Shown here piece after piece: positions 7,573 to 37,665 of a stretch of DNA of 64,000 nt; the first letter of the stretch is position 1, and every line of letters starts with the position of its first letter. Location: contig JAUVVY010000005.1 in NCBI GenBank assembly GCA_030604405.1, positions 62,001 through 126,000 on the forward strand, written 5' to 3'. A program made the position numbers and the translations under genes. Under the pieces are notes generated by a model. That model did not search any database, was not told the DNA's origin, and saw nothing but the letters and a program-made list of their open reading frames with translations. The DNA comes from a bacterium. Lineage in GTDB: Bacteria > Armatimonadota > Zipacnadia > Zipacnadales > UBA11051.

Positions 7573-9213
7573 TCAGTTGCAGATTATGGCCTCGTTAGCG
7601 CGCCGTACCAGCCCACCCATGGCCTCTGCATCGCCTGTCACGCACCACAGTTGCGCCATATTCCGCAGTTGTCGTGGTTCCATCCCCGCTGATCTCGCAA
7701 TAGAGGCGAGCGTGTGGGAGAAGTTGGTTAGTATGCCCGCTGCCTCCAACTCTGCGGCAAATTGCATTGTTACCGCAGTCATTTCGTGGAAAGCCATCCC
7801 GTTGATCTTGTATGGCAGCGGCTCCCAGAACTGCGGCGGAAACAGCAGCTTTACTTTGTAATCGAGGTTACTGAACAGGTACTCGTCCACATCATCTATT
7901 TCAATACTGTACTTTTCCGGCTTCTCTATCCATGGTGTGGCGGGGAACACGCCTGGAAATTGCAGTGGCACTGAGTCGGGCCGCAGCTCTTTCACAAACT
8001 CCATGCTTTCGGCCAGGGTCTCGGGCGTGTCGAAGGGCAGCGGGACGATCATGGAAGCCGCCGAGAATATGCCCGCTGCCTGAGCGGCCATCAGCGTCTC
8101 TCTGACCTTCTCCAGCCTGATCCCCTTGTGTACAGCCTGGTCCAGGATTTCCTGGCTGCCCGACTCGAGGCCGAAGAATATCGAGTACAGACCCGACCGA
8201 GCCATCACCTCAAAATGGTCGGGATTTGAGGTGCGGAAATGGCCGAAGGAGTTGTATTCGATATCAAGGCCGCGATCAATAATCTCCTGAGCCACCGCGT
8301 ACATCAAATCTCCCGGCGTCGAAGCGCCCCCGAAGCGAAATACCGATATGCCATGCCGCTGCTGCAGATGCTGCATGGTGTCCACGATCTTACCGGGGGA
8401 GGCGGTGCGCTGCCGACCTCCATCCTCCATCGGATGGACACAGAAGGCACAGCGGTTGGAGCAGCCGCGGCTGTCGGTGAGGATTACCATCTTGATCTTG
8501 TCATCGCCGGCCATCGCGGGATACACTTCGGGGTCGTACACCGGCATCGGAAATGAATCAAGGTCCACGCTCTCGTCACGGGGATGCTCCACGATCTGTT
8601 TACCGGTCTGGCAGACGATACCGGGGGTTTCCTGCAGGCCGGCCGCGCCGTCGCTAGTATCGGCCAGCTTGACGATAACGTCTTCAGGGTCTCCGAAAAT
8701 GATGGTATCAAAGGCGGGAGTCGAGCGGAATATGATACCACGGAACCAGCAGGCTTTGCGGCCACCGGCGGTGATGTGCAGGTCTGGGAATTCCTCGCGC
8801 ATCCGCTCGGCCAGGTGAACGCTGCCGGCATAGCCGTCGCCGTCGGAAAGCTCGAAGGCCACCAGGTCCGGCTGCCAGCGCCGGCTCTGCGCGACCAACT
8901 CGCTGCCTATTTCGAAGACAGTCTGCTCCTGATGAGCGTCCAGTTGCGCCGACCACTCTTGCAGCTTTGCCAACTGCTCGGGATCCGGCTGGCCGCCGCC
9001 ACCCATCAGCCCGACACCGAGCGGCTTGAGTTGCGCGCTGATCGCCTCAGGAAACAGCCGCCTCATCATGGATACCGTGCCGTAGTCAACGATCATGGCC
9101 TCATGACCTGCGCCAATCAAGGCCCCGGCGAGGTTGGCCAGCCAGTTGCTCGCAACCAGATGTCTGGGGCTGGAGGGATAGCCGGGATAGCTGACTAGCA
9201 AGGCTCGCGCCAT
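7573..9213 (-). CDS. B12-binding domain radical SAM protein
   Basis: 546 aa. The N-terminal ~190 residues fit a cobalamin-binding Rossmann domain (ARALLVSYPGYP..., VAFELSDGDGYAGS, HITAGGRKA), although the classical DxHxxG is not obvious. The radical SAM core follows with the CX3CX2C cluster GCSNRCAFC (Cys ~251, 255, 258), then FRFGGAS and a Gly-rich FFGLESGSQEILD segment typical of MiaB/HpnR-like and P-methylase-like class B enzymes. It probably methylates or rearranges an unactivated carbon; the substrate is unknown. The chosen ATG has GAGGAG 10-11 bases upstream; the longer frame begins inside the upstream gene and lacks family similarity. It lies 61 bases downstream of the glycosidase-like gene and is probably in the same operon. 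Confidence 0.88.
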   Translation of the reverse strand: MARALLVSYPGYPSSPRHLVASNWLANLAGALIGAGHEAMIVDYGTVSMMRRLFPEAISAQLKPLGVGLMGGGGQPDPEQLAKLQEWSAQLDAHQEQTVFEIGSELVAQSRRWQPDLVAFELSDGDGYAGSVHLAERMREEFPDLHITAGGRKACWFRGIIFRSTPAFDTIIFGDPEDVIVKLADTSDGAAGLQETPGIVCQTGKQIVEHPRDESVDLDSFPMPVYDPEVYPAMAGDDKIKMVILTDSRGCSNRCAFCVHPMEDGGRQRTASPGKIVDTMQHLQQRHGISVFRFGGASTPGDLMYAVAQEIIDRGLDIEYNSFGHFRTSNPDHFEVMARSGLYSIFFGLESGSQEILDQAVHKGIRLEKVRETLMAAQAAGIFSAASMIVPLPFDTPETLAESMEFVKELRPDSVPLQFPGVFPATPWIEKPEKYSIEIDDVDEYLFSNLDYKVKLLFPPQFWEPLPYKINGMAFHEMTAVTMQFAAELEAAGILTNFSHTLASIARSAGMEPRQLRNMAQLWCVTGDAEAMGGLVRRANEAIICN

Positions 9214-9274
9214 ATCAATGCTGGCTCCTCGAGCTTCCATTTCATGCTGCCATGGGTAACCGGAAGCTCTCGAG

Positions 9275-10597
9275 CTATCCTTCCCCGGTAATGTAAACGA
9301 CGGCATCATGGTTGTAATCAGGGACATCCAAGGCCTTTTCCCCATCCACGGGCACGTGCCTGCGCTCATGAAATCGCTTTCCAGTAGCCGGGTCAATCCA
9401 CTCAACGCGGTATGAGCCCTGAGGAAGATTGACCTTGAATGGACCGTTGTCGCGTCCCCACATATAGGCAAGATAAGCTTGCCTCTCTTCACACCGTTGA
9501 GCCAATTTCTGCCCGGGGCACGACACGATCCAGGTATCGTCTTTTACAAAGCGCTCAAATGGAATACTGTTTGCAAACTCAACCAAAACAGATACATCCT
9601 GTAGGGTTTCCTCTTCGCTCGTCTTCCCGCCCCCCCAATGGTCAACGCAGAGCATGCCCTGCGCCATGAATATCGCCCAGAAGACGGCCCTCTGTATTTC
9701 CCGGGGATGATGCCACCACACATACAGTTCATTGAAGACAACTGGCTTCGCCTGGTCGTAGCCAACGATCTTCCTGTAGTAATTCAGAGGGTCGTTGATG
9801 CCTCCCTTGTGCCGGTTGATGACGCGGTTACCTTCATTGAGGGCATCGAAATCGCTGCAGTAATCAGCAATGGTGGAGATGATATAGTCGCCCTTGCTGT
9901 TCACGCGATCAACAAAGTGCTTTCTCCAAGCGCCACCTCCTGTTGAAAGCTCGTTGTCAATCTCGATGATCACGAAATCTCTCGCCAACGAGGTGTCAAC
10001 CGTCTCAAGCACCTTATCCACCCATCGCTCCTGAAGCGCCTGGCAGGGATTACCCAAAGTGTAGAGACTCTTTTCATCAACAGGATGCGCCTGGATATTG
10101 TTGACTGGATTCCACCAGTGGTTTTCCCACTCATATCGTGCGCCCCATGGGTTGAATAATGTTAACTCTTGAACGATTTTCGCGCTGGCAGACGCGTCCA
10201 ACATGCGTTTGAGCTTATTAAAGAAGTCGGGGTTGAATTGAGACAGATCCGCCTTGTTTCCCACCAGTTTGAACGGGCAAGTAATCCCCTCCCGCTTCCA
10301 TAACTCAAGCCATGTGCGGATGTAGTTAGCCTTGCCTTTTACTTCGTTGACTCTTTCAGAGCAACTGCCTTGAGAACCGGCCTCAAGACCGGCTCCAGCA
10401 CTATATCCGCCCAACCATAAGGGTTTCCCATCCTTCTCGAAATACCAGTTCTTCACCGTCAGTCTGTGCTGGGCGGAGGCCTCCGCGCTTGTATCAGCCC
10501 GAGCGGTCAGGACGCTCCCAAGCTCCAGCCCGGCGCTCGCGAGTAGGCAGACCGATCCAAACATCAACAGCTTGAGCCACATCCTGGATTGTTGCAT
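9275..10597 (-). CDS. Secreted clan-A glycoside hydrolase-like protein
   Basis: 440 aa. A signal peptide is visible (MQQSRMWLKLLMFGS..., cleavage likely after TARA). The body looks like a TIM-barrel glycosidase: IIEIDNELS gives the Asn-Glu acid/base pair (Glu ~216) and VVFNELYVWW a second Glu (~290), as in GH5/GH-A enzymes. The last ~60 residues (LPQGSYRVEWIDPATG...VVYITGEG) resemble the small beta-sandwich often annotated as a collagen-binding tail in such proteins. GGAG sits 10 bases before the chosen ATG. Substrate not deducible. The gene is downstream of a sulfatase on the same strand, which suggests attack on a sulfated or decorated glycan. Confidence 0.7.
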   Translation of the reverse strand: MQQSRMWLKLLMFGSVCLLASAGLELGSVLTARADTSAEASAQHRLTVKNWYFEKDGKPLWLGGYSAGAGLEAGSQGSCSERVNEVKGKANYIRTWLELWKREGITCPFKLVGNKADLSQFNPDFFNKLKRMLDASASAKIVQELTLFNPWGARYEWENHWWNPVNNIQAHPVDEKSLYTLGNPCQALQERWVDKVLETVDTSLARDFVIIEIDNELSTGGGAWRKHFVDRVNSKGDYIISTIADYCSDFDALNEGNRVINRHKGGINDPLNYYRKIVGYDQAKPVVFNELYVWWHHPREIQRAVFWAIFMAQGMLCVDHWGGGKTSEEETLQDVSVLVEFANSIPFERFVKDDTWIVSCPGQKLAQRCEERQAYLAYMWGRDNGPFKVNLPQGSYRVEWIDPATGKRFHERRHVPVDGEKALDVPDYNHDAVVYITGEG

Positions 10598-13145: not shown

Positions 13146-13856
13146 TTAGTCACTGTCCCCTTCGTCTGTCAACTGTCCGCCAATTGCCGGCTCTTCCAGC
13201 GCCCACCAGGTGGTTGTGCGGTATTTGACATCCCCGGTGAGGTTGCGATGATCCAGAGGAGCGACGAGCTGGTCCATCAGCTCCAGCCGTCCGAGCTTTT
13301 GCAGTCGCTCGTAGATTTTTATCCACCCGCACGGGATGGCTCTGTCAACTTCACAACTGCCGTCCACGTCCGCTCCACCGCACTGGCCACTGACGAGGCC
13401 TTTGCTGCAAGCCACGCGCGGGCATATCCCTCCGGTATAGTGCAGCAGGCAATCCCCACATTCCATGCAGCGCTCCTCGCCCGGCCACAGCCCCTGGAAG
13501 CCGCCCATGGAAATCGTGTCCAGGACGGGATGAGTGATCTTGTCCACCGTACTCGCCACAGCTTGCACTCCGATGCCGCAAGACGAAACCAGCAGTGCGT
13601 CGGCCTCATTGAGTGCGTCGAGGCGCGCCATCAGACGCCGGGCGATGAGAATCTTATTACACAGAAAATCAATCGCTATGGTGTCAACAACTCGTTTGCC
13701 GGCCTCTGCCAGCCCCTGCTCAAGCCGCGCCAGTTGCTCGGCATCGCCGCTATCGCAGCCTTCAGGGCAGCCGGTGCACGCGATGATCAGAACCGACTGC
13801 TCGCCCTCCATGTACTCAACAATCTGTTCGATCGGCTTCGGTTTACTGGCTATCAT
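13146..13856 (-). CDS. MetV-like protein (methylene-THF reductase C-terminal family)
   Basis: 236 aa, last gene of the hydrogenase operon. Features of the MTHFR_C/MetV family: ACTGCPEGCDSGD near the N-terminus, SSCGIGVQ, then a Cys-rich segment GEERCMECGDCLLHYTGG followed by GICPRVACSKG and the conserved PCGWIKIYERL. The Cys sets should bind Fe-S and/or Zn. In acetogens and some other bacteria MetV pairs with MetF, supplying electrons for 5,10-methylene-THF reduction; in other genomes it sits with Hdr/Mvh modules. No metF is in the window. Start: ATG 13856 (AAAGGA upstream), overlapping the protease gene by 14 bases, so coupled translation is likely. Confidence 0.8.
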   Translation of the reverse strand: MIASKPKPIEQIVEYMEGEQSVLIIACTGCPEGCDSGDAEQLARLEQGLAEAGKRVVDTIAIDFLCNKILIARRLMARLDALNEADALLVSSCGIGVQAVASTVDKITHPVLDTISMGGFQGLWPGEERCMECGDCLLHYTGGICPRVACSKGLVSGQCGGADVDGSCEVDRAIPCGWIKIYERLQKLGRLELMDQLVAPLDHRNLTGDVKYRTTTWWALEEPAIGGQLTDEGDSD

Positions 13857-14334
13857 CTGTTCTTGTCCTTTCCGCAATTGCCTCAGCGATAGCGGTATCA
13901 ACAATCTTCGGCAGATTTGCCTCGACTTGCGGCGAAAGTTCGGTGCTCCACTCCACTTTGTGCGGCTGAACTCCGATTATTACGATGCGATCCGCCTCGA
14001 GGCCCCGAAGGCGCCACTCAGCCAGGGCCTCGGCCAGCGTGAACTCGTGCAGCGACAGCTCTGCATCCGTGTTCGCAGCCACGGACACCGGCAAGCGATA
14101 TACTGCTCCGGGCGGCCCGTCTGCCGCCACCGCATCCACGATTACCAGCCTGGCTATGTCGCCTACCGGCCCCAGGGCCTCCGTGGGCATCGTTCCGGCC
14201 TCGATTACTTCCACACCTTCGGGAAGCTCGACTTGTGCCAGCCGGCGCGCCACATGCACACCGACGCCCTCGTCACCGAGCAGCAGATTGCCCACGCCCA
14301 GAATGACTACTCGGCCCGCTTTTGTGTCCGTCAC
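13843..14334 (-). CDS. [NiFe] hydrogenase maturation protease (HyaD/HycI family)
   Basis: 163 aa endopeptidase that trims the C-terminus of the large subunit after nickel insertion. Visible: VVILGVGNLLLGDEGVGVHV with the Ni-sensing Glu/Asp region, VIVDAV, and SLHEFTLAEAL containing the conserved His. Its ATG overlaps the stop of the large-subunit gene by 4 bases, as expected for a dedicated maturation partner. The substrate here has a 15-residue extension after the DPCxxCxxH motif. Confidence 0.93.
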   Translation of the reverse strand: MTDTKAGRVVILGVGNLLLGDEGVGVHVARRLAQVELPEGVEVIEAGTMPTEALGPVGDIARLVIVDAVAADGPPGAVYRLPVSVAANTDAELSLHEFTLAEALAEWRLRGLEADRIVIIGVQPHKVEWSTELSPQVEANLPKIVDTAIAEAIAERTRTDDSQ

Positions 14335-15884
14335 ACGATCCGGTATCGGCCCAGTTCCTTGTCTTTGGCATCAATGATGTGGACAGCGCATGCCAGGCAG
14401 GGGTCGAATGATCTGGCTATCCGCACCACTTCGAACGGATTCTTCTCATCACGGATCTGGGTTCCAATCAAGGCCTGCTCGATCGGCCCTGGCTTATCCT
14501 CGTCGTCGCGGGGCGAGACGTTCCAGGTGGTGGGCACAACCAGTTGATACCGCGATATGACGCTATCCTCAATGTCTATATGGTGCAACAGTGCCCCGCG
14601 TGGGCCGTCAACCATGCCCGTGCCACTTCCTGTTTCGGGCAATTCGTAGTCGGCACAAACAGGCGCGCCGGGCTCGAGCTCCAGAACCCACTCGGCCATT
14701 GCGTCGGCAACAAGCTTGGCTTCCAAAGCGCGCGCGGCGTGACGGCCCAGTGTGGATTGCAAAGCCGCCGGCTCGGCATCCAGTGCCGCCAACAAGCTGT
14801 CAACAGCCGGCTTAACCTTCTCATCGCCCGCATGGTATGCTACAAGCCACCTGGCAAGCGGCCCGACCTCATACGGCTCTCCGTTGAGCCGCGGCGCTTT
14901 CGCCCAACTGTAAGCTTCCGGCTTGTCCGCTTGGGGCTCAGTGCGCCCTTCTGACGGGTGCAGGCGGCTGTAGTCGTCCTGGAAGTATGAGTACTTGAGG
15001 TCTTCGGTGATTGCCTGGGCGTCCACCGCCCCAAGCTGTCCGTTCAGCGCTCCGGAAGGCAGATACCGAGGCCGCTTCATCAGATCTGTCTCCGTGGTGT
15101 CCATGTCGAATAGACCGTATGCGAGATATCTGCCGCAGCCCTTTCCAATTTCAAAATAATCCGGGTAGGCCGTGGCGACAGCTACAACGTCGGGCACGTA
15201 ACACTCATCTATGAAGCGCTGGACATCCTGGAGCCTGCCCAGGAATGACGCCGCCTTGTCCGCCGTGGGGACCTCGCAGGCGCCTCCCGGCACGCACCCG
15301 ACCTCGTGCGGCATCTTGCCGCCGAAAGTCGCAACCATCTCATGAGTGAGGCGACGCATGTCCAGGGCGCGCACGTAATGCGATGCCGCGGCGGCATTGG
15401 TCTCCTTGTCCAGGCACAAGTCCCCTTCATACCGCGGCACAAAGGGGGCCCACTCGCCCCGTTGTAGGAACGCCGCAAGCTGTTGTAGCCCCGCGTCATC
15501 TCCGGTATAGTCCGCCGCGGCCGCCGGGTCAACATAGTCAAGCGCGGCCAGCGCGTAGAAGTGGAGTATGTGAGACTGAAGATAGTTGGCGCCGAGAATC
15601 AGATTGCGGATGATCCGGCCGTTGTCGGGGATCTGGTCTGCCACACCGATTGCCTGGTCCAAAGCCAGACTGGAGCAGACGGAGTGTACTGCCGGACAGA
15701 CCCCGCAAACCCGTGTCGTGAGGCGCTGGGCGTCCATCGGATGGCGCCCTATCAGAATCTGCTCGAACCCGCGAAACATCGGGCCGGAAGCCCGGGCATC
15801 TTTGACCTCGCCATTGTCCACAGTCACATCAATCTTGAGATGTCCTTCAACACGGCCAACCGGATCTATTGTGATGCGTGCCAT
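14331..15884 (-). CDS. [NiFe] hydrogenase large subunit, group 1-like
   Basis: 517 aa catalytic subunit. Both nickel-binding motifs are complete: L1 RVCGVCPAVHSVC (Cys ~60, 63) and L2 SFDPCLACAVH (Cys ~496, 499; His 502). The 15-residue tail (IIDAKDKELGRYRIV) is what the adjacent protease should remove. Other landmarks: ITIDPVGRVEGHLKI, MFRGFEQILIGR, GGKMPHE, and DGPRGALLHH near the C-terminus. The sequence resembles group 1 uptake enzymes more than group 3 or 4. AGGAG 8 bases before ATG 15884 sets the start; longer upstream frames lie in the intergenic region after the small-subunit stop. Confidence 0.96.
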   Translation of the reverse strand: MARITIDPVGRVEGHLKIDVTVDNGEVKDARASGPMFRGFEQILIGRHPMDAQRLTTRVCGVCPAVHSVCSSLALDQAIGVADQIPDNGRIIRNLILGANYLQSHILHFYALAALDYVDPAAAADYTGDDAGLQQLAAFLQRGEWAPFVPRYEGDLCLDKETNAAAASHYVRALDMRRLTHEMVATFGGKMPHEVGCVPGGACEVPTADKAASFLGRLQDVQRFIDECYVPDVVAVATAYPDYFEIGKGCGRYLAYGLFDMDTTETDLMKRPRYLPSGALNGQLGAVDAQAITEDLKYSYFQDDYSRLHPSEGRTEPQADKPEAYSWAKAPRLNGEPYEVGPLARWLVAYHAGDEKVKPAVDSLLAALDAEPAALQSTLGRHAARALEAKLVADAMAEWVLELEPGAPVCADYELPETGSGTGMVDGPRGALLHHIDIEDSVISRYQLVVPTTWNVSPRDDEDKPGPIEQALIGTQIRDEKNPFEVVRIARSFDPCLACAVHIIDAKDKELGRYRIV

Positions 15885-15939
15885 TGTGCTCTCTCCTTGC
15901 TTCGACAAGACGTGTTGCGGTGGTACGCCGCTGTTTGGA

Positions 15940-16878
15940 CTACTCGCTGGGCTCTGAGCATGGCGCTGAGGCCGGCGCGACATATTTCAACTCGCCGGTT
16001 GTCTCATCGCGTTCGATGCGAGGTAGTTGATCGGCGCTGATCTTCTTGTAAAGGGCGCTGCCGATGTCTGGGAAGCCGGGCTCGACGCACCCGAGGCACG
16101 GGCTGCCCGCACCAATCGGCCAACTGATCCCGCTGTTCCACTGTCGCAAGGGGCAGTCGCTGTAAGTCACCGGCCCCTTGCAGCCCAGCTCGTAGAGGCA
16201 TCCCGGCTCACCGTGGTGTGAGGCGAACTTGCCGGCATCAAAATCTGCGCGGCGCGGGCAGTTTTCGTGAATGAGTTGACCGAAGAAAGCGCGCGGCCGA
16301 CCGTGTTCATCAACATCGTCTGCTGTCGGCAAGCCGTGTAGCAGCACATGGACCAAAGTGCCCAGAATCCAGTCCGGGTGCGCCGGGCAGCCGGGCACAT
16401 TGACGCACGGAGTCTCGATGCCGTGCTCTGCCAGAACCTGGCTGGCAGGCTTAGACCCGGACGCGTTAGGCGCCGCAGCCGGAATGCCCCCGAACGCCGC
16501 ACACGTGCCTACCGCCACCACACACAGCGCTTTTTCGGCCAGCTCCGTAAAAGTCGTGACTATACTCAACTCCTCACCCTCACCTGTGGTCCCGCCGATG
16601 TAGGGCATCTTCTCTGGAATCGCGCCTTCGAGGATCAGCACATAGCCCTCTTCCGTTTCCTGCATATCGAAGAGGATTTCCAGCGCCAACTCGCCGGAGG
16701 CCGCCATTATGGTGGGATGGAAACGCACCTGAACGTGCTTGCCAGGGACAAGCTCCTCCAGCAACACGTTGGCGACACGTGGTGCTGCGGCGTTAAGCAG
16801 TGAGACGGAACAGCCGGAACAGCCTGTCCCTTGCAGCCAGACGACGGGGATTTCCTGTGTGCCTTGCTGAGTCATCAT
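15940..16878 (-). CDS. [NiFe] hydrogenase small subunit, group 1-like, no Tat signal
   Basis: 312 aa electron-transfer subunit. Proximal cluster ligands lie in WLQGTGCSGCSVSLL, VAVGTCAAFGG and NVPGCPAHPDW. The medial/distal cluster domain has CLYELGCKGPVTYSDCP and GAGSPCLGCVEPGFPD, a group 1-type C-terminus. The usual twin-arginine leader (RRxFxK) is absent at the chosen start (two adjacent ATGs, 16878/16875, with GAGGGGCGAGGG upstream) and also from the upstream in-frame stretch. The enzyme is therefore predicted to be cytoplasmic. First gene of a four-gene operon. No cytochrome b or other membrane anchor is next to it. Confidence 0.95.
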   Translation of the reverse strand: MMTQQGTQEIPVVWLQGTGCSGCSVSLLNAAAPRVANVLLEELVPGKHVQVRFHPTIMAASGELALEILFDMQETEEGYVLILEGAIPEKMPYIGGTTGEGEELSIVTTFTELAEKALCVVAVGTCAAFGGIPAAAPNASGSKPASQVLAEHGIETPCVNVPGCPAHPDWILGTLVHVLLHGLPTADDVDEHGRPRAFFGQLIHENCPRRADFDAGKFASHHGEPGCLYELGCKGPVTYSDCPLRQWNSGISWPIGAGSPCLGCVEPGFPDIGSALYKKISADQLPRIERDETTGELKYVAPASAPCSEPSE

Positions 16879-17228: not shown

Positions 17229-17315
17229 TCGACAAGCTCACGGTGCTGAGCAACGTCGAAGCACAGGCTCACGGCCCTGCCTGCCCTGAGCTTGCCGAAG
17301 GGAGCAACGTCGAAG
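17229..17315. repeat. REP-like palindromic element
   Basis: TTCGACAAGCTCA (17229-17241) is matched in inverse by TGAGCTTGCCGAA (17287-17299) with one mismatch. GAGCAACGTCGAAG occurs twice as an exact direct repeat (17248-17261 and 17302-17315). This composition matches the common extragenic palindromes built on a TTCGACAAGCTCA core found in many environmental bacteria. It lies just before the MttB pair. Confidence 0.65.
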
Positions 17316-17360
17316 GGCAAGGGCAGCCCGAGGTCGTTGGCATACATGGAGGGGAGACGC

Positions 17361-18815
17361 ATGAGAGTGAATGTGCAGGCCAATACTGCCCCGCAGTTTC
17401 GCGTCCTATCGCAACAGGACGCAGAGCGCATCTACCTGGCCGCACTGCAAATCCTGGCCGACATCGGTATGCTCATTCACGAGCCGGCCGCTTGTCAGCT
17501 TCTCGCCGACAATGGCGCCAGGGTGAAGGCTGAGCTGGTGCAGATTCCTGAGAGTATGGTCAGGCGCGCCATTGCCGCCGCGCCACAGCGATTCACAGTC
17601 CACGCCCGTGACCCCGAGAAGTCTCTGCGTATTGAGCCCAACCGGGTTTACTATGGCCCCGGGCCGACGTGTCCGAACTTCATAGATCCGGACAGCGGCG
17701 AGCGACGGCCCTACGTCATGGATGATGCCATAGCGGTCGCCCGGACCTGCGACGCGCTTGACAACATTGATTTCGTCGAGTCACTGGGCTCTATCCTCGA
17801 TGCGCCCGCTGACCAGATGGATGTCTATGAATTCGCTCTGATGGCCCAATACACGGTCAAGCCCATCGTGGCTTGGTCGTTCAGCCAAGAGACCTGTGCC
17901 GACATCCACCGCATGGCTGTGGCGATGGCCGGTGGGGAGGAGGCTTTCGCACAAAAGCCCAACTACATCTTCTATGCCGAGCCGATGTCGCCTCTTAATA
18001 GCGGTCAGGACGCGATGCAGAAGCTGATGTACTGCGCGCGCCACCGGATTCCCATAGTGTTCACACCGGGCCTGCTTGCGGGCGCGACGGCCCCGGCGAC
18101 CTTCGCCGGCGTGCTGGCACAGGGGCTGGCCGAAGCGCTTCACGGTCTGGTAGTGGCGCAGCTCATCTCGCCGGGCACGCCCCTCATCATAGGCGGCGTC
18201 GTTTCGATCATGGATATGCGCGATATGGTGCTGGCCTACGGCGCGCCGGAGCTTTCCCTGCTCAGCGCCGGCCTCACCGAGGTGGCTCGCCTCCTGGGCC
18301 TGCCGATGTGGTCAACCGGCGGCTGCACCGACGCCAAGACCGTTGACGAGCAGGCCGCCATTGAGGCCGCAATTTCCATCGCCATGGCCGGGCTGTCAGG
18401 CCCTAATCTCGTTCATGATGTCGGCTACACCGATTCCGGTCTTACCGGCTCCCTGAGCATGCTTGTGATGTGTGACGAGATTATCGCCATGGTCAAGCGT
18501 GTACTTCGCGGCCTGGAAGTGACCCCGGAGACGCTGGCTGTCGAGGTCATTGATGCCGTCGGCCCGGGCGGCAATTTCATCGGCGAAGACCATACAGTGA
18601 AGCGGTTCCGCGCCGAATGTTACTTCCCCGAACTGGCCGACCGCAGCAATGTCGAGAGTTGGCAGGCCCGTGGCGCTACGACGATGGGCCAGCGGGTCGA
18701 GCAGAGAGTGAAAGAAATCCTCGCCACTCATCAACCGACGCCGCTGCCAGATGACGTGGTCGCCCAATTTGACGGGGTGCTGGCGGCAGCCGTCGCCCGC
18801 AGGGAAAGGGGTTGA
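17361..18815 (+). CDS. Trimethylamine/quaternary amine methyltransferase, MttB family (copy 1)
   Basis: 484 aa, TIM-barrel methyltransferase of the MttB superfamily, which moves a methyl group from a methylated or quaternary amine to a corrinoid protein. Landmarks: RVLSQQDAERIYLAALQIL at the N-terminus, ISIMDMRDMVLAYGAPE, GGCTDAKTVDEQAA, VGPGGNFIGEDHTVK. There is no in-frame amber codon, so it belongs to the non-pyrrolysine branch (glycine betaine, carnitine or proline betaine type demethylases are characterised there). GGAGGGG 6 bases before ATG 17361 sets the start. Only 4 bases separate it from the second copy. No corrinoid partner gene is adjacent. Confidence 0.92.
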   Translation: MRVNVQANTAPQFRVLSQQDAERIYLAALQILADIGMLIHEPAACQLLADNGARVKAELVQIPESMVRRAIAAAPQRFTVHARDPEKSLRIEPNRVYYGPGPTCPNFIDPDSGERRPYVMDDAIAVARTCDALDNIDFVESLGSILDAPADQMDVYEFALMAQYTVKPIVAWSFSQETCADIHRMAVAMAGGEEAFAQKPNYIFYAEPMSPLNSGQDAMQKLMYCARHRIPIVFTPGLLAGATAPATFAGVLAQGLAEALHGLVVAQLISPGTPLIIGGVVSIMDMRDMVLAYGAPELSLLSAGLTEVARLLGLPMWSTGGCTDAKTVDEQAAIEAAISIAMAGLSGPNLVHDVGYTDSGLTGSLSMLVMCDEIIAMVKRVLRGLEVTPETLAVEVIDAVGPGGNFIGEDHTVKRFRAECYFPELADRSNVESWQARGATTMGQRVEQRVKEILATHQPTPLPDDVVAQFDGVLAAAVARRERG

Positions 18816-18819
18816 GGAG

Positions 18820-20277
18820 ATGTTGGTGAATCAACTGACTGACGCAACCACCACCTTCCGCGTGCTCACCGACGATCAGTGCGAGCTTATCTACCGCGCC
18901 GCTCTGGAGATCCTCGCGCGAACTGGCGTAGTGGTGCACGATGACGAGGGGTTGCAGTTGCTGGAGGCGGCGGGCGCTGAAATCTCGGACGGCAAGCGCG
19001 CGCGCATTCCAGCTTCGGCTGTCGAGCAAGCTCTGGCGGTGACGCCCTCGACGATCCGCATCGTGGGCCGCGATCCGCACCAGGTCTGCCGCCTGGAAAA
19101 GGACCGTATCTATTTCGGCACCGGCTCCGACTGCCCGTTCTTGTATGATCGCGACACCGGCCAGCGGCGCGGTTGGACGTATGCCGATATCCGCGATGCC
19201 GCGCGTGTGGCCGATGCCCTTGACAACATCGGATTTCACATGTCCCTGGGCCTCACGCAGGACGTTCCGGAGATGACCTACGACCGCCACCAGTTCCTGG
19301 CAATGCTCGAGGGTACGGCCAAGCCACTTGTGCAGACCGCCGTGGACCGCGAGGGCCTGGCCGACCAATATGAAATGGCCTGCATCATTCGCGGGGGCGC
19401 CGAGGCCTTCGAACTGGCGCCCTTGCTGACTCTGTACGCGGAGCCCAGCAGCCCGCTGACCCACACCAGGACAGCCGTGGAAAAAGTGCTCTTCGCCGCG
19501 GAGAAACGCATCCCGTGCATCTACACGCCCGGTTCGATGGCCGGCGCCACCACGCCCATCACCGGGGCCGGTGCTTTGGCTTGCGGCCTCGCCGAAACCC
19601 TCAGCGGGATAGTCATGGCCCAGCAGAAAGCGCCGGGAGCGCCAATCATCGGCGGCGGCGTCATTTCGATCATGGACATGCGCGATCTCATCCTGAGCTA
19701 CGGCGCGCCTGAGCTGCATCTGTTCACGGCCGCATTCAGCGATGTGACCAAGTGGCTGGATTTGCCGATCTTCTCCATCGCCGGCTGCAGCGACTCCAAG
19801 GTGCTGGATCAACAAGCCGCCATCGAGTCTGCGCTGTCGCTGTTATTCGCCGCCCTGTCCGGGGGCAACCTGATACACGACGTCGGCTATCTCGAATCAG
19901 GGCTGGTCGGCTCATACGAGATGCTGACCCTTTCAGACGAGGTCATCGGGATGGTCAAACAGATCCTTCGCGGCATCCGTGTGGACGAGGAGACGCTGGC
20001 GGTGGACGTTATCTGCGAGGCCGGCCCGGGCGGACAGTACATCGCATCTGACCACACGTACAAGCACTTCCGCAGCTTCTGGGAGCCGACGACGATGGTG
20101 CGCCACGGATTTGAGCGGTGGGTGGCAGAGGGCTCCAGGACTATGGGCGAGCGCATCAGGGACCGCGTCACCGAGATTCTGCAGACGCATGAGCCAGTGC
20201 CGATCCCAGAGGATCAAATGGCGGAACTGAAGAGCATTGTCGCCGCAGCCGATGCCCAGCATGCCCGAGCAGAATAA
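18820..20277 (+). CDS. Trimethylamine/quaternary amine methyltransferase, MttB family (copy 2)
   Basis: 485 aa, clear paralogue of the preceding gene. Shared landmarks include FRVLTDDQCELIYRAALEIL, ISIMDMRDLILSYGAPE, AGCSDSKVLDQQAA, LIHDVGYLESGLVGS and AGPGGQYIASDHTYKHF. No amber codon. The tandem pair, 4 bases apart, may form a heteromeric enzyme or handle successive demethylations. Start ATG 18820 follows AAAGGGG and GAGGAG. The downstream neighbour is convergent. Confidence 0.92.
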   Translation: MLVNQLTDATTTFRVLTDDQCELIYRAALEILARTGVVVHDDEGLQLLEAAGAEISDGKRARIPASAVEQALAVTPSTIRIVGRDPHQVCRLEKDRIYFGTGSDCPFLYDRDTGQRRGWTYADIRDAARVADALDNIGFHMSLGLTQDVPEMTYDRHQFLAMLEGTAKPLVQTAVDREGLADQYEMACIIRGGAEAFELAPLLTLYAEPSSPLTHTRTAVEKVLFAAEKRIPCIYTPGSMAGATTPITGAGALACGLAETLSGIVMAQQKAPGAPIIGGGVISIMDMRDLILSYGAPELHLFTAAFSDVTKWLDLPIFSIAGCSDSKVLDQQAAIESALSLLFAALSGGNLIHDVGYLESGLVGSYEMLTLSDEVIGMVKQILRGIRVDEETLAVDVICEAGPGGQYIASDHTYKHFRSFWEPTTMVRHGFERWVAEGSRTMGERIRDRVTEILQTHEPVPIPEDQMAELKSIVAAADAQHARAE

Positions 20278-28204: not shown

Positions 28205-28216
28205 GTGCCCAGGAAA

Positions 28217-28337
28217 TACGACCGAAGAATGTGCAGCGTTAGAAGGAGGTTCGCTATGTGGCCATTCAGACCCAACATTGAGAAGATGGAAAAGAGGGGA
28301 AATGTGCGCGGTCTCATCAATGCACTCAAAAACAGCG
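28217..28337 (+). repeat. Duplicated 5' leader of HEAT gene, copy 1
   Basis: From TACGACCGAAGAATGTGCAG through the ribosome site AAGGAGG and the first ~27 codons of the HEAT gene, this stretch is nearly identical to 30483-30603. It marks a gene-scale duplication with its translation-start region. Confidence 0.85.
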
Positions 28338-29437
28338 ACGACGATGTGCGCTCGTGGGCCGCGGAGGCGCTGGGACACATCGGCGATGCGCGGGCCGTGG
28401 AGCCGCTGTGTGAGGCCCTGAAAGACAGGGATGAGTTTGTGCGCCAGGTCGCCGCGTGGGCGCTGGTGGAGATCGGCGATGCGCGAGCCGTGGAGCCGCT
28501 GTGCGAGGCCCTCAAAGATAGCGACGACGATGTGCGCGGGAACGGCGCGCGGGCGCTGGGGCGGATTGGCGATGCGCGGGCCGTGGCGGCACTCTGTGAG
28601 GTCCTTAGAGACAGCGAGCGCATGGTGTGCTACCACGCCGCGGAGGCGCTGGGGCTGATCGGCGATGTGCGAGCCGTGGAGCCGCTGTGTGAGGCTCTGA
28701 AAGAGAGCAAGTGCTATAGGTACGATGTGGCCTCGGGCGCCGCGAGGGCACTGGGGAGAATCGGCGATGCGCGGGCCGTGGAGCCGCTGTGTGTGGTCCT
28801 CAAAGACAGCTTTGGCAATGTGAACTCGGCTGCTGTGCAGGCGCTGGGGGCGATCGGCGATGCGCGGGCGGTGGAGCCGCTGTGTCAGGGCCTCAAAGAC
28901 AGCGGGAGCTATGTGCGCTCGGCCGTCGCGCACGCGCTGGGAGAAATTGGCGATGCGCGGGTCGTGGAGCCGCTGTGTGAGGCCCTCAAAGATAGCGAGC
29001 GCTATGTGCGCGAGGCCGCCGCGGAGGCGCTGGTCAAGATCGGTGCTCCGGCCGTGGAGGCACTCTGTGAGGCCCTCAAACGCACCGAGTCGTGTGTGCG
29101 CCGGGCCGCCGCGGAGGCGCTGGGGCAGATCGGCGATCCCCGGGCCGTGGAGCCACTCTGTGAGGCGCTGGGAGACAACTACTGGCTTGTGCTCCCGGCC
29201 GCCGTGCAGGCGCTGGTCAAGATCGGTGCTCCGGCCGTGGGGCCGCTGTGTGAGGCCCTCAAAGATAGCGACTGGCGTGTGCGCTCGGATGCCGCGTGGG
29301 CGCTGGGGCGGGTCGGCGATAGGCGAGCCGTGGATCCACTGCGTGAGAGGGCGCGCAAAGACGTGCACACCGATGTCCGCGAGGCCGCCGAGGAGGCGCT
29401 CCACGACATTCGCTTGCGCGGCGACGGAACCGTGTAG
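28256..29437 (+). CDS. HEAT-repeat protein A (12 repeats)
   Basis: 393 aa. After a short basic start ([19 protein letters not shown]) the whole protein consists of about twelve 31-residue HEAT/PBS-lyase-type repeats of the form [19 protein letters not shown] plus xxAAxALGxIGD. Such solenoids are usually protein-protein scaffolds; phycobilin lyase activity is not implied. AAGGAGG 6 bases before ATG 28256 is an excellent ribosome site. The DNA repeats (about 93 bases) are highly similar to each other, so copy number is probably unstable. The gene lies 51 bases after the FAH gene and may be read from the same promoter. Confidence 0.93.
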
Positions 29438-29553
29438 GCGTGGCACGCTGTGGCAAGAGGGGGGGCGACTCGCGCGGCATCGCGGGGTGCCGTCGCTATG
29501 GAGGTGGCGTGTGAGGCGCTCAAGGACAGCTACGCCGATGTGCGCTCGGCCGC
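29432..29553 (+). repeat. HEAT cassette junction repeat, copy 1
   Basis: The end of gene A (GTGTAGGCGTG...), the linker with GCGACTCGCGCGGCATCGC, and the start of gene B (ATGGAGGTGGCG...GTGCGCTCGGCCGCC) are repeated at 30248-30373 with few differences. This is a direct repeat marking the recombination unit. Confidence 0.85.
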
Positions 29554-30253
29554 CTCGGAGGCGCTGGGAAAGATCGGCGATGGGCGGGCCGTGGAGCTCT
29601 TGCTTGAGGCCCTCAAAGATAGCCACGACGATGTGCGCTGGGCCGCCGCGAGGGCGCTGGGAGAGATCGGCGATGCGCGAGCCGTGGAGCCGCTATGTGA
29701 GGCGCTGAAACAGAGTCACGGCTCTGTGCGCTTGGTCCCCGCGTACGCGCTGGGGAAGATCGGCGATGCGCGAGCCGTGGAGCCGCTCATTGAGGCCCTG
29801 AAAGACAGGAGGGAGGATCTGCGCTCGGCCGCCGCGTGGGCGCTGGGAAAGATCCGCGATCCGCGAGTCGTGGAGCCGCTGTGTGAGGCGCTGAAAGACA
29901 GCCACAGCGATGTGCGGTACAGGGGCGCGGAGGCGCTGGCGCGGATCGGCGATGGGCGGGCCGTGGAGCCGCTGTGTGAGGCGCTGAAAGACAACGAAGC
30001 CAATGTGCGCTCGGCCGCCGCGAAGGCGCTGGGGCAGATCGGCGATGCGGGAGCCGTGGAGCCGCTGTGTGAGGCCCTCAAAGACAACACCTATTTCGTG
30101 CGCCGGGACGCCGCGTGGGCGCTGGGCAAGATCGGCGATGCGCGAGCCGTGGAGGCGCTCCGTGAGGCCCTCAAAGACAGCGACGGCGAAGTGCGTTTGG
30201 CCGCTCGCGAGGCGCTTAACGAGATTCGCGCGCGCCGCGACGCAACTGTGTAG
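29498..30253 (+). CDS. HEAT-repeat protein B (8 repeats), lacks normal leader
   Basis: About 251 aa of eight 31-residue HEAT repeats ([16 protein letters not shown]...), ending EIRARRDATV like protein A's LRGDGTV end. Unlike A and C it lacks the MWPF leader and the AAGGAGG site. The frame begins within a repeat (MEVACEALKDSYADVR), and the nearest start codons (ATG 29498 or GTG 29450) have poor ribosome sites. It may be a 5'-truncated duplicate, expressed weakly by readthrough or not at all. Its stop is followed by the same junction repeat that follows protein A. Confidence 0.7.
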   Translation: MEVACEALKDSYADVRSAASEALGKIGDGRAVELLLEALKDSHDDVRWAAARALGEIGDARAVEPLCEALKQSHGSVRLVPAYALGKIGDARAVEPLIEALKDRREDLRSAAAWALGKIRDPRVVEPLCEALKDSHSDVRYRGAEALARIGDGRAVEPLCEALKDNEANVRSAAAKALGQIGDAGAVEPLCEALKDNTYFVRRDAAWALGKIGDARAVEALREALKDSDGEVRLAAREALNEIRARRDATV

Positions 30254-30373
30254 GCGTGCCACGCTCTAGCAGCAAGAGGAGAGGCGACTCGCGCGGCATC
30301 GCTGGGTGCCGTCGCTATGGAGGTGGTGTGTGAGGCCCTCAAGGACAGCTACGCCGATGTGCGCTCGGCCGCC
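30248..30373 (+). repeat. HEAT cassette junction repeat, copy 2
   Basis: Second copy of the junction at 29432-29553: the stop of gene B, the GCGACTCGCGCGGCATCGC linker and a restarted MEVVCEALKDSYADVR frame. Differences are small substitutions plus short indels in the linker. Confidence 0.85.
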
Positions 30374-30385
30374 GCGTCGGGATGA
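30317..30385 (+). pseudogene. Truncated HEAT-repeat fragment
   Basis: 22 codons beginning MEVVCEALKDSYADVRSAA, equivalent to the start of protein B, then an immediate stop (TGA 30383-30385). It is the stub of a third copy whose remaining repeats have been deleted. Confidence 0.75.
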
Positions 30386-30470
30386 GGTTGCTTTGCTAAA
30401 CACAACATGGTGGGTTGGCCGCAAGGGCAGCACAATCGCCTTTTTCGAGCATGCAGTGTCTCAAAGTGTT

Positions 30471-30479
30471 TGATACAAT
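30471..30479 (+). promoter_or_regulatory. Candidate extended -10 promoter for HEAT gene C
   Basis: TGATACAAT fits an extended -10 element (TGnTAnAAT) in a more AT-rich patch about 43 bases before ATG 30522. No good -35 hexamer is visible. Nothing equivalent precedes gene A, which abuts the FAH gene. Confidence 0.4.
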
Positions 30480-30482
30480 GCG

Positions 30483-30603
30483 TACGACCGAAGAATGTGC
30501 AGCGTTAGAAGGAGGTTAGCTATGTGGCCATTCAAACCCAACATCTGGAAGATGAAAAAGAGGGGGAACGTGCGCGGTCTCATCAAGGCACTCAAGAACA
30601 GGG
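30483..30603 (+). repeat. Duplicated 5' leader of HEAT gene, copy 2
   Basis: Near-identical partner of 28217-28337, covering the TACGACCGAAGAATGTGCAG leader, AAGGAGG and the first codons of gene C. Confidence 0.85.
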
Positions 30604-31826
30604 ACGAGTATGTGCGTCGGAAGGCCGCGAAGGCGCTGAGGAAAATCGGCGGTCGGCGGGCCGTGGGGCCGCTGTGCGAGGCCCTCAAAGACAGCGACGA
30701 CCGTGTGCGCCGGAACGCTGCCGGGGCGCTGGGGGAGATCGGCGCTCCGGCCGTGGAGCGGCTGTGTGTGGCCCTAAAGGACAGCAACTGGCATGTGCGC
30801 TCGTACGGCGCGTGGGCGCTGGGGCGGATCGGCGATGCGCGAGCTGTGGAGCCGCTGTGTGAGGCCCTGAAAGACAGGCCCTTCCAGGTGCGCTCGTACG
30901 CCGCGTGGGCACTGGGGCAGACCGGCGATGCGCGAGCCGTGGAGCCGCTGTGTGAGGCCCTCAAAGACAGCGACGCCAATGTGCGCTGGCGCGCCGCGAG
31001 GGTACTGGGGCAGATCGGCGATGCGCCAGCCGTGGAGCCGCTGTGTAAGGCCCTCAAAGACAGCGACCGCTATGTGCGCTTGGCCGCGGCGAGGGCGCTG
31101 GGGCAGATCGGCGATGCGCGGGCCGTGAAGCCGCTGCTTGAGGCCCTGAAAGACACCAAGGAGGATGTGCGCACGCACGCCGCGGAGGCGCTGGTCAAGA
31201 TCGGCGCTCCGGCCGTGGAGCCGCTATGCGAGGCGCTCAACGGAGGCTTCCCGCATACGCGGGGCCTGGCCGCGTATGCGCTGGGGCAGATCGGCGATGC
31301 GCGAGCCGTGGAGCCGCTATCTGAGGCCCTGAAAGACAGGCACGCCGATGTGCGCTCGGCTACCGCGGAGGCGCTGCTCAAGATGCGGGCGCTGGACGCG
31401 CTTGTGGCCGTACTCACCGTCCCGGACACGGAGGTATGTAGGGACCTTCTGTACGTCCTCGCCACTACCGAAGATGTGTGGGCTGAGAAGCCCCTTCGGG
31501 CCACGCTTGAGAGCGGCCATCAAGCTGCTCGCGACGCGGCCTCGCGGGCGCTTCGGTGCTGGGAGCGACCCAACATTCCTATCGGCACGTCTCAGGCCGA
31601 CGTGAAAGCCCTGCTGGGCGAGCCGCACGCCGCGGCCACAGGTACCGACTTACTCGCGGCGACGCGAAAGGACCGCGCCCGCTGGGTCGGAACGAGTGCC
31701 GCCGTGGACAGGGTGGAGTCCTTGTGGGCAGAACTGGGTACCTGGCGCTACAAGTTTGACGATACAACGTACGAGATACGCTTCGAGAGTGGCAGGGTAC
31801 ACAGCGTGTCGAAATATCCGACGTGA
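30522..31826 (+). CDS. HEAT-repeat protein C with SmpA/BamE-like C-terminus
   Basis: 434 aa. It begins [19 protein letters not shown], like protein A, continues with nine regular and two degenerate HEAT repeats to about residue 345, and ends in a different domain. That domain ([20 protein letters not shown] ... [19 protein letters not shown]) resembles SmpA/OmlA-BamE-type folds (start GxSxxDVxxLLGxP), here probably cytoplasmic because no signal peptide is present. AAGGAGG precedes ATG 30522. The family may have gained or lost this C-terminal module by recombination in the repeats. Confidence 0.9.
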
Positions 31827-35898: not shown

Positions 35899-37665
35899 TT
35901 ACAACTTTCGGTTCCCCACTGTGGTGCCGGTAATGTAGGCCTTGCCGTCCTCGTCAATGTGGGTCAGGCGCGAGACCATGAGCGCATCCAGGTCCTCAGG
36001 CGGCTCCGCTGGCACATGTTCCCAGCGCGTCCCAAGTACCAGCGGGACCCATTCCTCCCGCTCTTCAGGGCACTCGAACTTCGACAGGACTGTGTGGACG
36101 GTTATGCCATCGGCCCTTTCGTGCCGGTAGGCGACCGGCCCTACGCCCCTGGCCAGCCAGCAGTAGTGCTGCCCACACCAGATTTTGTTCAGCTCGCGTT
36201 GTCGCGACTCGTTGTCGGCATCCAGCGGCGATTCGGTGGTCTCAGCACGCACCAGCAGACATCCCTCGAACTCTCCGGCTGGGGTACTCACGCCCTCTTC
36301 TTCGCTTTCTATGCGGATGCGTGTGTGTGTCGGGTTGCCTGTATAGGAGAAGGTACTGATTTCCTCTTGCCAGCCCTTCTGTGGACCCGTATATGGTAAC
36401 CAGCGGATTTGCCACAGCAAGTCGAAGCCGCTCATGAACTTGGCCGTTTCCTCCCGCGTACCGTTAGTGACTGAAAAGCCAGGCTGCCCTTCAAAGCAGA
36501 GGCGTTCGTTTTGTACTTTGACGACATCACATCCAGCGCCCCAGTTCACTTTGGCGTCGCGATCAAGTTGTCCGCCGGTGATCGTTTGGAAGTCGTCTGA
36601 GGCGTCCAGGCACGCGTGCCATAGCATGTAAGGCTCGTCTTTGATGGCGTCACGGGCTTGCTCGAGCATCTCGAAGCCCTCATCAAACTTGCCACAGGAA
36701 ATATGGTGCCAGCCGCGGAAGAACAGGGCTCCGCCAAGATCCACGTATTGGTTAGTTTCCTTGAACAGTTCGATCGCACGTGCCTCCAGCGCATCACGCT
36801 CAGTTCGCGTGAGTTGGCGGTCACCATTCACCAAGGTGTACAGCAATTGGGCAACCTGCGCTCGGTCATCCACGTCTTCGCAAATCCGCAGCGCCTCCCG
36901 CGTGGCCTTCTGCCAGCGCTCTTTATCGGCGAAGTACGTGGACGCCCGCACGATACCCAGCCCCTCTAGGCGCAAAGTGCGTTGCTCTTCCTCCCTGCCC
37001 TCGGCCTCCGAGAGCGCTTCCAGAGCCTCCTCTGCCATGGCTCTGGCCGCGCTGAGTTCTTGCCGCTCGACAGCCTCCCGGGCCCTGTCCATGCTCTTGC
37101 GCACGGTATCCAGTGTGAACTGCTGGTCGGGCGCGCCGCTCTTCAGCGTGTCTTCCGTCATTTGCAACACCTCCTCTGAAAGCTTCCGCCTTGCCCTTTC
37201 AATTCTACCCTTGACAGTGGTTACGGGTACGTCTGTGAGGTCCGCAACCTCCTGGTAGCTGTACCCGTTCACCAAGAAGAGCGAGAGGGCGAGGCGGTTG
37301 TCATTGGAAAGTGCGGAGAGCGCGCGTGCCACCAGGTCCTTGGATACCACGGTTGACGCCGTATCGGGGAAGGACATGTCTATGCCGTCCAGGGACACCC
37401 ATTCTCGCTCGGGCTTGCGAAGCCAGCTCGTCGCCAGGTTGCGTGAGATGCGAACTATCCAACTGGGAAAGCACGCCAGGTCTCGCAAGGTCCCGAGCAG
37501 CTCGTATGCGCGAATGAACGTCTCCTGGGCAATGTCGCGGGCTGCTTCGACATCCAGCACCTTCTCGTACGCGGTGGCGAACACGGCATCCTGGAACCTG
37601 CGCACCAGCTCGGTGTACGCTTCGGCATCCCCGGCTTGGGCACGTCTTACTAGCTTCGCGACCAT
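35899..37665 (-). CDS. ECF-type RNA polymerase sigma factor with large C-terminal fusion
   Basis: 588 aa, three times the usual ECF length. Residues ~1-75 are sigma region 2 (RRFQDAVFATAYEKVLD, ARDIAQETFIRAYELLG, SWIVRISRNLATSWL). Residues ~105-170 are region 4 (NGYSYQEVADLTDVPVTTVKGRIERARRKL written in two parts). A helical, TPR-like section follows (~190-330). The last ~200 residues contain STPAGEFEGCLLVRAETTES and YCWLARGVGPVAYRHE, the pattern (TPAGxFxxCLxV ... ARGVGxV) seen in secreted lipoprotein-like beta domains, here without any signal or membrane segment. The tail may sense a ligand and control the sigma activity. It could be autonomously regulated, since no anti-sigma gene is nearby. 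Confidence 0.88.
   Translation of the reverse strand: MVAKLVRRAQAGDAEAYTELVRRFQDAVFATAYEKVLDVEAARDIAQETFIRAYELLGTLRDLACFPSWIVRISRNLATSWLRKPEREWVSLDGIDMSFPDTASTVVSKDLVARALSALSNDNRLALSLFLVNGYSYQEVADLTDVPVTTVKGRIERARRKLSEEVLQMTEDTLKSGAPDQQFTLDTVRKSMDRAREAVERQELSAARAMAEEALEALSEAEGREEEQRTLRLEGLGIVRASTYFADKERWQKATREALRICEDVDDRAQVAQLLYTLVNGDRQLTRTERDALEARAIELFKETNQYVDLGGALFFRGWHHISCGKFDEGFEMLEQARDAIKDEPYMLWHACLDASDDFQTITGGQLDRDAKVNWGAGCDVVKVQNERLCFEGQPGFSVTNGTREETAKFMSGFDLLWQIRWLPYTGPQKGWQEEISTFSYTGNPTHTRIRIESEEEGVSTPAGEFEGCLLVRAETTESPLDADNESRQRELNKIWCGQHYCWLARGVGPVAYRHERADGITVHTVLSKFECPEEREEWVPLVLGTRWEHVPAEPPEDLDALMVSRLTHIDEDGKAYITGTTVGNRKL

What the first reader, a model, noticed from the sequence alone, without database searches (positions are those of the whole stretch)
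13146..16878. Cytoplasmic group-1-like [NiFe] hydrogenase in one operon with a MetV-like protein
Both subunits have group 1-type motifs, yet no Tat leader and no membrane cytochrome are present. The operon ends with a MetV/MTHFR-C protein overlapping the maturation protease. MetV is known to work with MetF or with Hdr-type modules, not with a two-subunit group 1 enzyme. This could be a compact route from H2 to methylene-THF reduction or to a ferredoxin/thiol acceptor.
Basis: partly seen in the sequence, partly recalled or inferred. Interest (0 to 1): 0.62.

Follow-up and report, generated by a model that had tools for sequence, protein, structure and literature searches.

The report
Hydrogenase operon with its own MetV
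This bacterium carries a small hydrogen-splitting enzyme, apparently inside the cell, in one operon with a special version of the electron-carrying subunit of a carbon-fixation enzyme; relatives in two phyla keep the same arrangement, often with the missing partner beside it, which points to a direct but still untested path from hydrogen gas to carbon reduction.

Summary
The four genes are real: [NiFe] small subunit, large subunit, maturation protease and a MetV (PF12225) overlapping the protease. The small subunit has no Tat leader; no membrane partner lies in the operon. The host belongs to Zipacnadia/WS1 (Armatimonadota). In 46 class genomes, 5 carry this hydrogenase, and just those 5 carry an intact extra MetV beside it. 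Across the phylum, 15 of 16 genomes with a large-subunit match have MetV adjacent; in 11, MetF follows. In Bipolaricaulota the order is small-large-MetV-MetF, usually then Fhs, and in 11 of 11 genomes counted this MetV is the only one. Hydrogenase-linked MetVs of both phyla form one clade (100/99) with a C-terminal W/Y-A-L-E-like tail (24 of 24, against 0 of 33 other MetVs). Best reading: an H2:methylene-THF oxidoreductase, MetV carrying electrons from hydrogenase to MetF. In the window's lineage MetF lies elsewhere, in a folate/acetyl-CoA gene cluster, so that step is inferred. HysAB-MetVF adjacency and this idea were already proposed in one sentence for Great Salt Lake Bipolaricaulia (PMC11287216). 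I found no report of the MetV subtype, its tail, the Armatimonadota operons or the MetF-less form, and no biochemistry.

The parts
15940..16878 (-). [NiFe] hydrogenase small subunit, no Tat leader, no C-terminal membrane anchor seen
   Evidence: PF01058 + PF14720; PDB hits to NiFeSe/NiFe small subunits; N-terminus
14331..15884 (-). [NiFe] hydrogenase large subunit, Cys (not Sec) in L2, with cleavable C-terminal tail
   Evidence: PF00374 and NF033181 over cut-offs; PDB hits; C-terminus; start
13843..14334 (-). hydrogenase maturation protease (HycI/HupD superfamily)
   Evidence: PF01750, TIGR00072
13146..13856 (-). hydrogenase-linked MetV subtype with 12 conserved cysteines and a C-terminal WALE tail; overlaps the protease by 14 nt
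   Evidence: PF12225; MetV tree; conserved residues; start

Best explanation
The operon encodes the hydrogen-oxidising part and the electron adaptor of an H2-dependent methylene-tetrahydrofolate reductase. Shown here: a two-subunit group 1-type [NiFe] hydrogenase without export signal, with its own protease, in one tight gene run with a MetV subtype that (with few exceptions explained by contig ends or inserted genes) is found only beside such hydrogenases; in most relatives the next gene is metF. Inferred: H2 is split at the NiFe site in the cytoplasm; electrons run along the small-subunit Fe-S chain to the clusters of this MetV, docked perhaps by its W-A-L-E tail; MetV passes them to the flavin of MetF, which reduces methylene-THF to methyl-THF in the Wood-Ljungdahl pathway. 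In the window's lineage MetF is the single copy in the fchA-folD-metF cluster and would have to serve both this MetV and the genome's second MetV.
For: MetV adjacency in 15 of 16 Armatimonadota genomes with the LSU, MetF following in 11. SSU-LSU-MetV-MetF, usually with Fhs, in Bipolaricaulota. In 11 of 11 Bipolaricaulota genomes counted the linked MetV is the only PF12225 protein. Co-occurrence of LSU and intact extra MetV in 5 of 46 class genomes. One MetV clade across two phyla, 100/99; subtype tail 24 of 24 against 0 of 33; all 12 cysteines kept. No Tat leader. MetF, Fhs, acetyl-CoA synthase and HypD in G000, MetF in a folate/acsE locus read by eye. Same proposal for Bipolaricaulia in PMC11287216.
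Against: No biochemistry. In the window, G016, G017 and G024 metF is not seen in the operon (contig ends in G016 and G017), and MetF does not split by context in a tree. G000 also has a second MetV. A soluble H2:methylene-THF reaction would give up about 41 kJ/mol (own arithmetic from -414 and -200 mV in PMC8760232) without evident conservation. LSU monophyly is unresolved.
Confidence: 0.7

Rival explanations
1. In the window's lineage the hydrogenase-MetV unit has lost its link with MetF and uses MetV as an exit to ferredoxin or another soluble carrier, as an H2:ferredoxin valve.
For: metF is not in this operon; a second MetV exists that could serve MetF; MetVF enzymes accept ferredoxin electrons in vitro (PMC8760232, passages).
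Against: MetV keeps all 12 cysteines, the subtype residues and low dN/dS; relatives in the same class (G030) keep MetF in the operon.
Confidence: 0.15
2. The unit runs backwards: methyl-THF from methylamine-type substrates (two MttB-like genes lie divergently beside it) is oxidised and H2 is made.
For: Two PF06253 genes at 17292-20277; hydrogenases are reversible (general knowledge).
Against: The couple at about -200 mV makes H2 production strongly uphill (PMC8760232); MttB-like genes were not seen beside the operon in most relatives read by eye (one MttB-like ORF recognised by eye in L239).
Confidence: 0.06
3. An ordinary respiratory group 1a hydrogenase exported to the periplasm; MetV is a chance neighbour.
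For: Sequence class is group 1 nearest to periplasmic enzymes; PMC10290634 reads group 1a in Zipacnadia in the usual respiratory way.
Against: No Tat leader in linked SSUs (pattern hit in 1 of 23, upstream of the likely start), while all 11 printed close unlinked relatives show an RR leader; no cytochrome in the operon; adjacency conserved in two phyla.
Confidence: 0.04

Closest known systems
HysAB beside MetVF in Ca. Bipolaricaulia of Great Salt Lake (PMC11287216; section 16 and passages read)
   Same: Group 1a hydrogenase next to MetV and MetF; proposed to supply electrons for methylene-THF reduction.
   Different: One sentence, no subtype, no tail, no localisation argument; Armatimonadota and operons without MetF are not treated.
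MetVF methylene-THF reductases, types II-IV (PMC8760232, passages read)
   Same: MetV as electron-input subunit for MetF.
   Different: Donors there are ferredoxin, NADH through RnfC2, or Hdr/MvhD modules; here a two-subunit hydrogenase is the partner.
Periplasmic [NiFeSe]/[NiFe] group 1 hydrogenases (e.g. PDB 5jsu, 4kl8)
   Same: Closest solved sequences of both subunits.
   Different: Those are exported and the NiFeSe ones use Sec; this one has Cys, no leader and a MetV partner.
Hydrogen-dependent CO2 reductase of acetogens (recalled)
   Same: A soluble hydrogenase coupled directly to another Wood-Ljungdahl step.
   Different: [FeFe] hydrogenase and formate dehydrogenase; unrelated proteins and step.

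Membership tests
Group 1 [NiFe] hydrogenase (1a / Hys-like) | Large and small subunit families with group 1-type L2 motif and nearest solved relatives in group 1 | tested here: met
   L2 RSFDPCLACAVH
Group 1 [NiFe] hydrogenase (1a / Hys-like) | Twin-arginine leader on the small subunit (export) | tested here: not met
Group 1 [NiFe] hydrogenase (1a / Hys-like) | HydDB or reference-tree subgroup | not tested
   No HydDB; published HydDB calls of 1a for related taxa only
[NiFeSe] hydrogenase | Selenocysteine in L2 | tested here: not met
   Cys in the window; in-frame TGA in L056 and L060
MetVF-type methylene-THF reductase | MetV with PF12225 and its conserved cysteines | tested here: met
MetVF-type methylene-THF reductase | MetF beside MetV | tested here: not met
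   Not in the window operon; single MetF elsewhere; adjacent in 11 of 16 Armatimonadota genomes with the LSU
MetVF-type methylene-THF reductase | Methylene-THF reduction activity | not testable with these tools
   Needs enzyme assay
Type III / IV MetVF complexes | RnfC2 or Hdr/MvhD subunit in the operon | tested here: not met
   The four operon genes are hydrogenase subunits, protease and MetV; the rest of the genome was not searched for these subunits

The most novel reading that the evidence does not exclude
A fifth architecture of methylene-THF reductase: a soluble H2:methylene-THF oxidoreductase made of a cytoplasmic group 1 hydrogenase, a dedicated MetV with a WALE docking tail, and MetF. 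In the window's lineage MetV has become an exchangeable electron adaptor: one MetF served by two MetVs, one wired to H2 and one to another donor.
Probability: 0.4. Interest if true: 0.75.

Novelty: new variant of a known kind. Interest (0 to 1): 0.6.

Why it matters
The physiological electron donor of MetVF-type methylene-THF reductases is an open question in acetogen bioenergetics (PMC8760232). A hydrogenase wired straight to MetV would be a defined donor that can be tested, with a sequence signature (the tail) to tell H2-wired from other MetVs in genomes. It would also change how group 1a hydrogenases of uncultured Armatimonadota and Bipolaricaulota are read: cytoplasmic carbon reduction rather than respiration. 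The operons without MetF would be a natural case of adaptor swapping on one flavoenzyme.

Tried and rejected
A periplasmic respiratory role was rejected (no leader). Type III/IV coupling was rejected for the operon (no RnfC2/Hdr gene in it). AlphaFold2 model of the window MetV with 15 sequences: mean pLDDT 63.9, most of the cluster domain and the tail under 50; Foldseek against PDB gave only generic matches of the N-terminal part; neither is used as evidence. No solved chain matches MetV by sequence at E up to 1. In one search the query named MetF2 was taken from the wrong strand; its hits are antisense artefacts and were ignored. The Tat pattern is crude: it hits 12 of 60 unlinked SSUs, most of those 60 being beta-proteobacterial rows with distant large subunits; only the 11 printed close relatives were compared by eye (all show RR; 8 by the pattern). 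Rows dropped: 3 of 61 MetVs before the tree, 4 of 61 before the residue count, 1 of 49 MetFs; one search left out two LSU fragments and most beta-proteobacterial rows. Colman et al. 2022, cited by PMC11287216, was not held, so an earlier report there cannot be excluded.
Full report
What is there. On the minus strand at 16878-13146 lie four tightly packed genes: small subunit (SSU), large subunit (LSU), HycI/HupD-type protease, and a MetV with PF12225. Starts were refined from ribosome-binding sequence and relatives: SSU ATG 16878, LSU ATG 15884 and MetV ATG 13856. Against the sister genome G017 dN/dS is 0.137 (MetV), 0.245 (protease), 0.146 (LSU) and 0.088 (SSU), so all four are maintained.

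What kind of hydrogenase. The best solved relatives of both subunits are periplasmic NiFeSe and NiFe group 1 enzymes; the LSU passes the cut-off of NF033181. The L2 motif is RSFDPCLACAVH followed by a cleavable tail; Cys stands where true NiFeSe enzymes of the set (L056, L060) have an in-frame TGA. The SSU has no twin-arginine leader, also not in the upstream open frame. Among SSUs of MetV-linked operons the Tat pattern hit 1 of 23, a stretch upstream of the likely start in G110, while the 11 printed close unlinked relatives all show an RR leader. HydDB was not available; group 1a is the published HydDB call for such enzymes in Zipacnadia (5 of 64 MAGs) and Hebobacteria (11 of 13) (PMC10290634, passages) and in Bipolaricaulia (PMC11287216, section 16).

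Whose genome. The window is part of contig C69 of G000. Named relatives with 93 and 64% LSU identity are Candidatus Zipacnadia and one with 72% is candidate division WS1; Zipacnadia is a class of Armatimonadota (PMC10290634). G000 has one MetF, in a locus that, read by eye, also holds folP, fchA, folD and acsE. Fhs, acetyl-CoA synthase and HypD are present. PF12225 occurs twice in G000: the window copy and a second MetV on C63, not beside metF.

Conservation in the class and phylum. Of 46 class genomes, 5 have the LSU. MetV matches occur in 38 of 46; six genomes have two. Five of these six are the LSU genomes, whose extra MetV lies beside the hydrogenase; the sixth, G037, has a 41-residue MetV fragment next to a protease fragment without subunit genes, which looks like a decayed remnant of the operon. 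Across the phylum, 16 of 291 genomes match the LSU profile. MetV is adjacent in 15 of these 16, and MetF follows in 11: G030, G110, G237, G240-G246 and G258. G074, the exception, is divergent and carries a Tat leader. G000 and G024 have no MetF after MetV; in G016 and G017 the contig ends there, but each has a single MetF elsewhere.

Other phyla. A scan of the species-genome collection with the LSU alignment kept the best 80 of 168 loci; MetV lies in 14 of these 80: 3 Zipacnadia/WS1 and 11 titled mostly Acetothermia/Bipolaricaulota. There the order is SSU-LSU-MetV, then MetF where the contig reaches, then usually Fhs. Their LSUs end right after DPCLACA[IV]Q (10 of 11) or H (1 of 11), without a cleavable tail, and no protease was detected in these loci. 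Records titled Neomarinimicrobiota (L063) and Caldisericota (L067) fall into the same phylum set. In that phylum 35 of 100 held genomes have a MetV match. Of 30 loci examined (of 38 matches), an LSU is directly upstream in 21, one of them a weak, frame-broken match (L223). In L227 the hydrogenase lies about 4 kb upstream behind regulatory genes; L224 comes near a contig end; 7 are plain MetVs beside MetF without hydrogenase. In 11 of 11 Bipolaricaulota genomes counted, the linked MetV is the only PF12225 match (4 of 4, 7 of 7). Of 10 further Armatimonadota genomes with the operon, 9 have two PF12225 matches and G110 has one.

A dedicated MetV. In a tree of 58 MetVs, the 25 hydrogenase-linked ones from both phyla form one side of a branch with support 100/99. 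Twelve cysteines are invariant in linked (24 of 24) and other (33 of 33) MetVs. Linked ones share Gly29, Leu70, Trp124, Tyr140, Gly177 (nearly all rows) and a C-terminal W/Y-A-L-E-like stretch: 24 of 24, against 0 of 33. In the wider Bipolaricaulota set the tail varies (WALE, WAIE, WDLE, WAVD, WAID, WAVE) and is absent from all 7 plain MetVs; in L213 the contig is cut and in L223 the frame is broken before it. MetF does not split by context, and the LSU tree neither proves nor excludes one origin. So the specialised part is the adaptor, MetV.

Mechanism. MetV is the Fe-S subunit of MetVF enzymes, whose donors define types II-IV (PMC8760232, passages). A dedicated MetV next to a soluble hydrogenase and, in relatives, MetF and Fhs is best read as H2 -> hydrogenase -> MetV -> MetF -> methylene-THF. 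The span of -414 to -200 mV (same paper) makes this about -41 kJ/mol (own arithmetic): a strong pull without evident energy conservation, which would suit heterotrophic acetogens; Zipacnadia are described as lacking Rnf (PMC10290634). For the window the MetF step is an inference, because metF is not in the operon. That the tail docks to the hydrogenase is a guess from its distribution.

Prior art. PMC11287216 states that HysAB is adjacent to MetVF in two Bipolaricaulia populations and may supply electrons for methylene-THF reduction. PMC10290634 reports group 1a hydrogenases in Zipacnadia and Hebobacteria and holds no mention of MetV. Searches gave no other statement of this pairing and no enzyme data in the listings and passages I saw; only open-licence papers are held.

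Verdict. Observation confirmed; interpretation supported in its first alternative; new variant of a known kind.

Noticed in passing
window 17292-20277 (+): Two MttB-family (PF06253) methyltransferase genes start divergently from the hydrogenase operon; below the cut-off of the pyrrolysine-type TIGR02369 model.
   Followed up: no
L061-L068, L072, L074, L075 (LSU 3' ends): Bipolaricaulota large subunits are encoded without the cleavable C-terminal tail and end in Gln instead of His in 10 of 11, with no protease detected in these loci.
   Followed up: partly
window 16000-16200 (SSU) and relatives: The medial-cluster position reads SWP in the window and G017 (as in [3Fe-4S] enzymes, recalled) but WC in nearly all other linked SSUs (as in NiFeSe enzymes).
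   Followed up: no
L240 4213-4696: Overlapping decayed fragments of the protease and the hydrogenase-linked MetV in G037, without subunit genes: a remnant of a lost operon.
   Followed up: partly
L237 4609-9267: In one Bipolaricaulota genome signal-transduction genes (cyclic-nucleotide-binding-like protein, response regulators, by eye) sit between the hydrogenase and MetV-MetF.
   Followed up: no
window 28205-31826 (+): Three neighbouring proteins made almost wholly of HEAT/PBS-lyase repeats.
   Followed up: no
window 35899-37665 (-): Sigma-70 family protein of 588 aa whose sigma domains cover only the first third.
   Followed up: no
window 7573-9492 (-): Radical SAM protein with a weak B12-binding match, below cut-off.
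   Followed up: no
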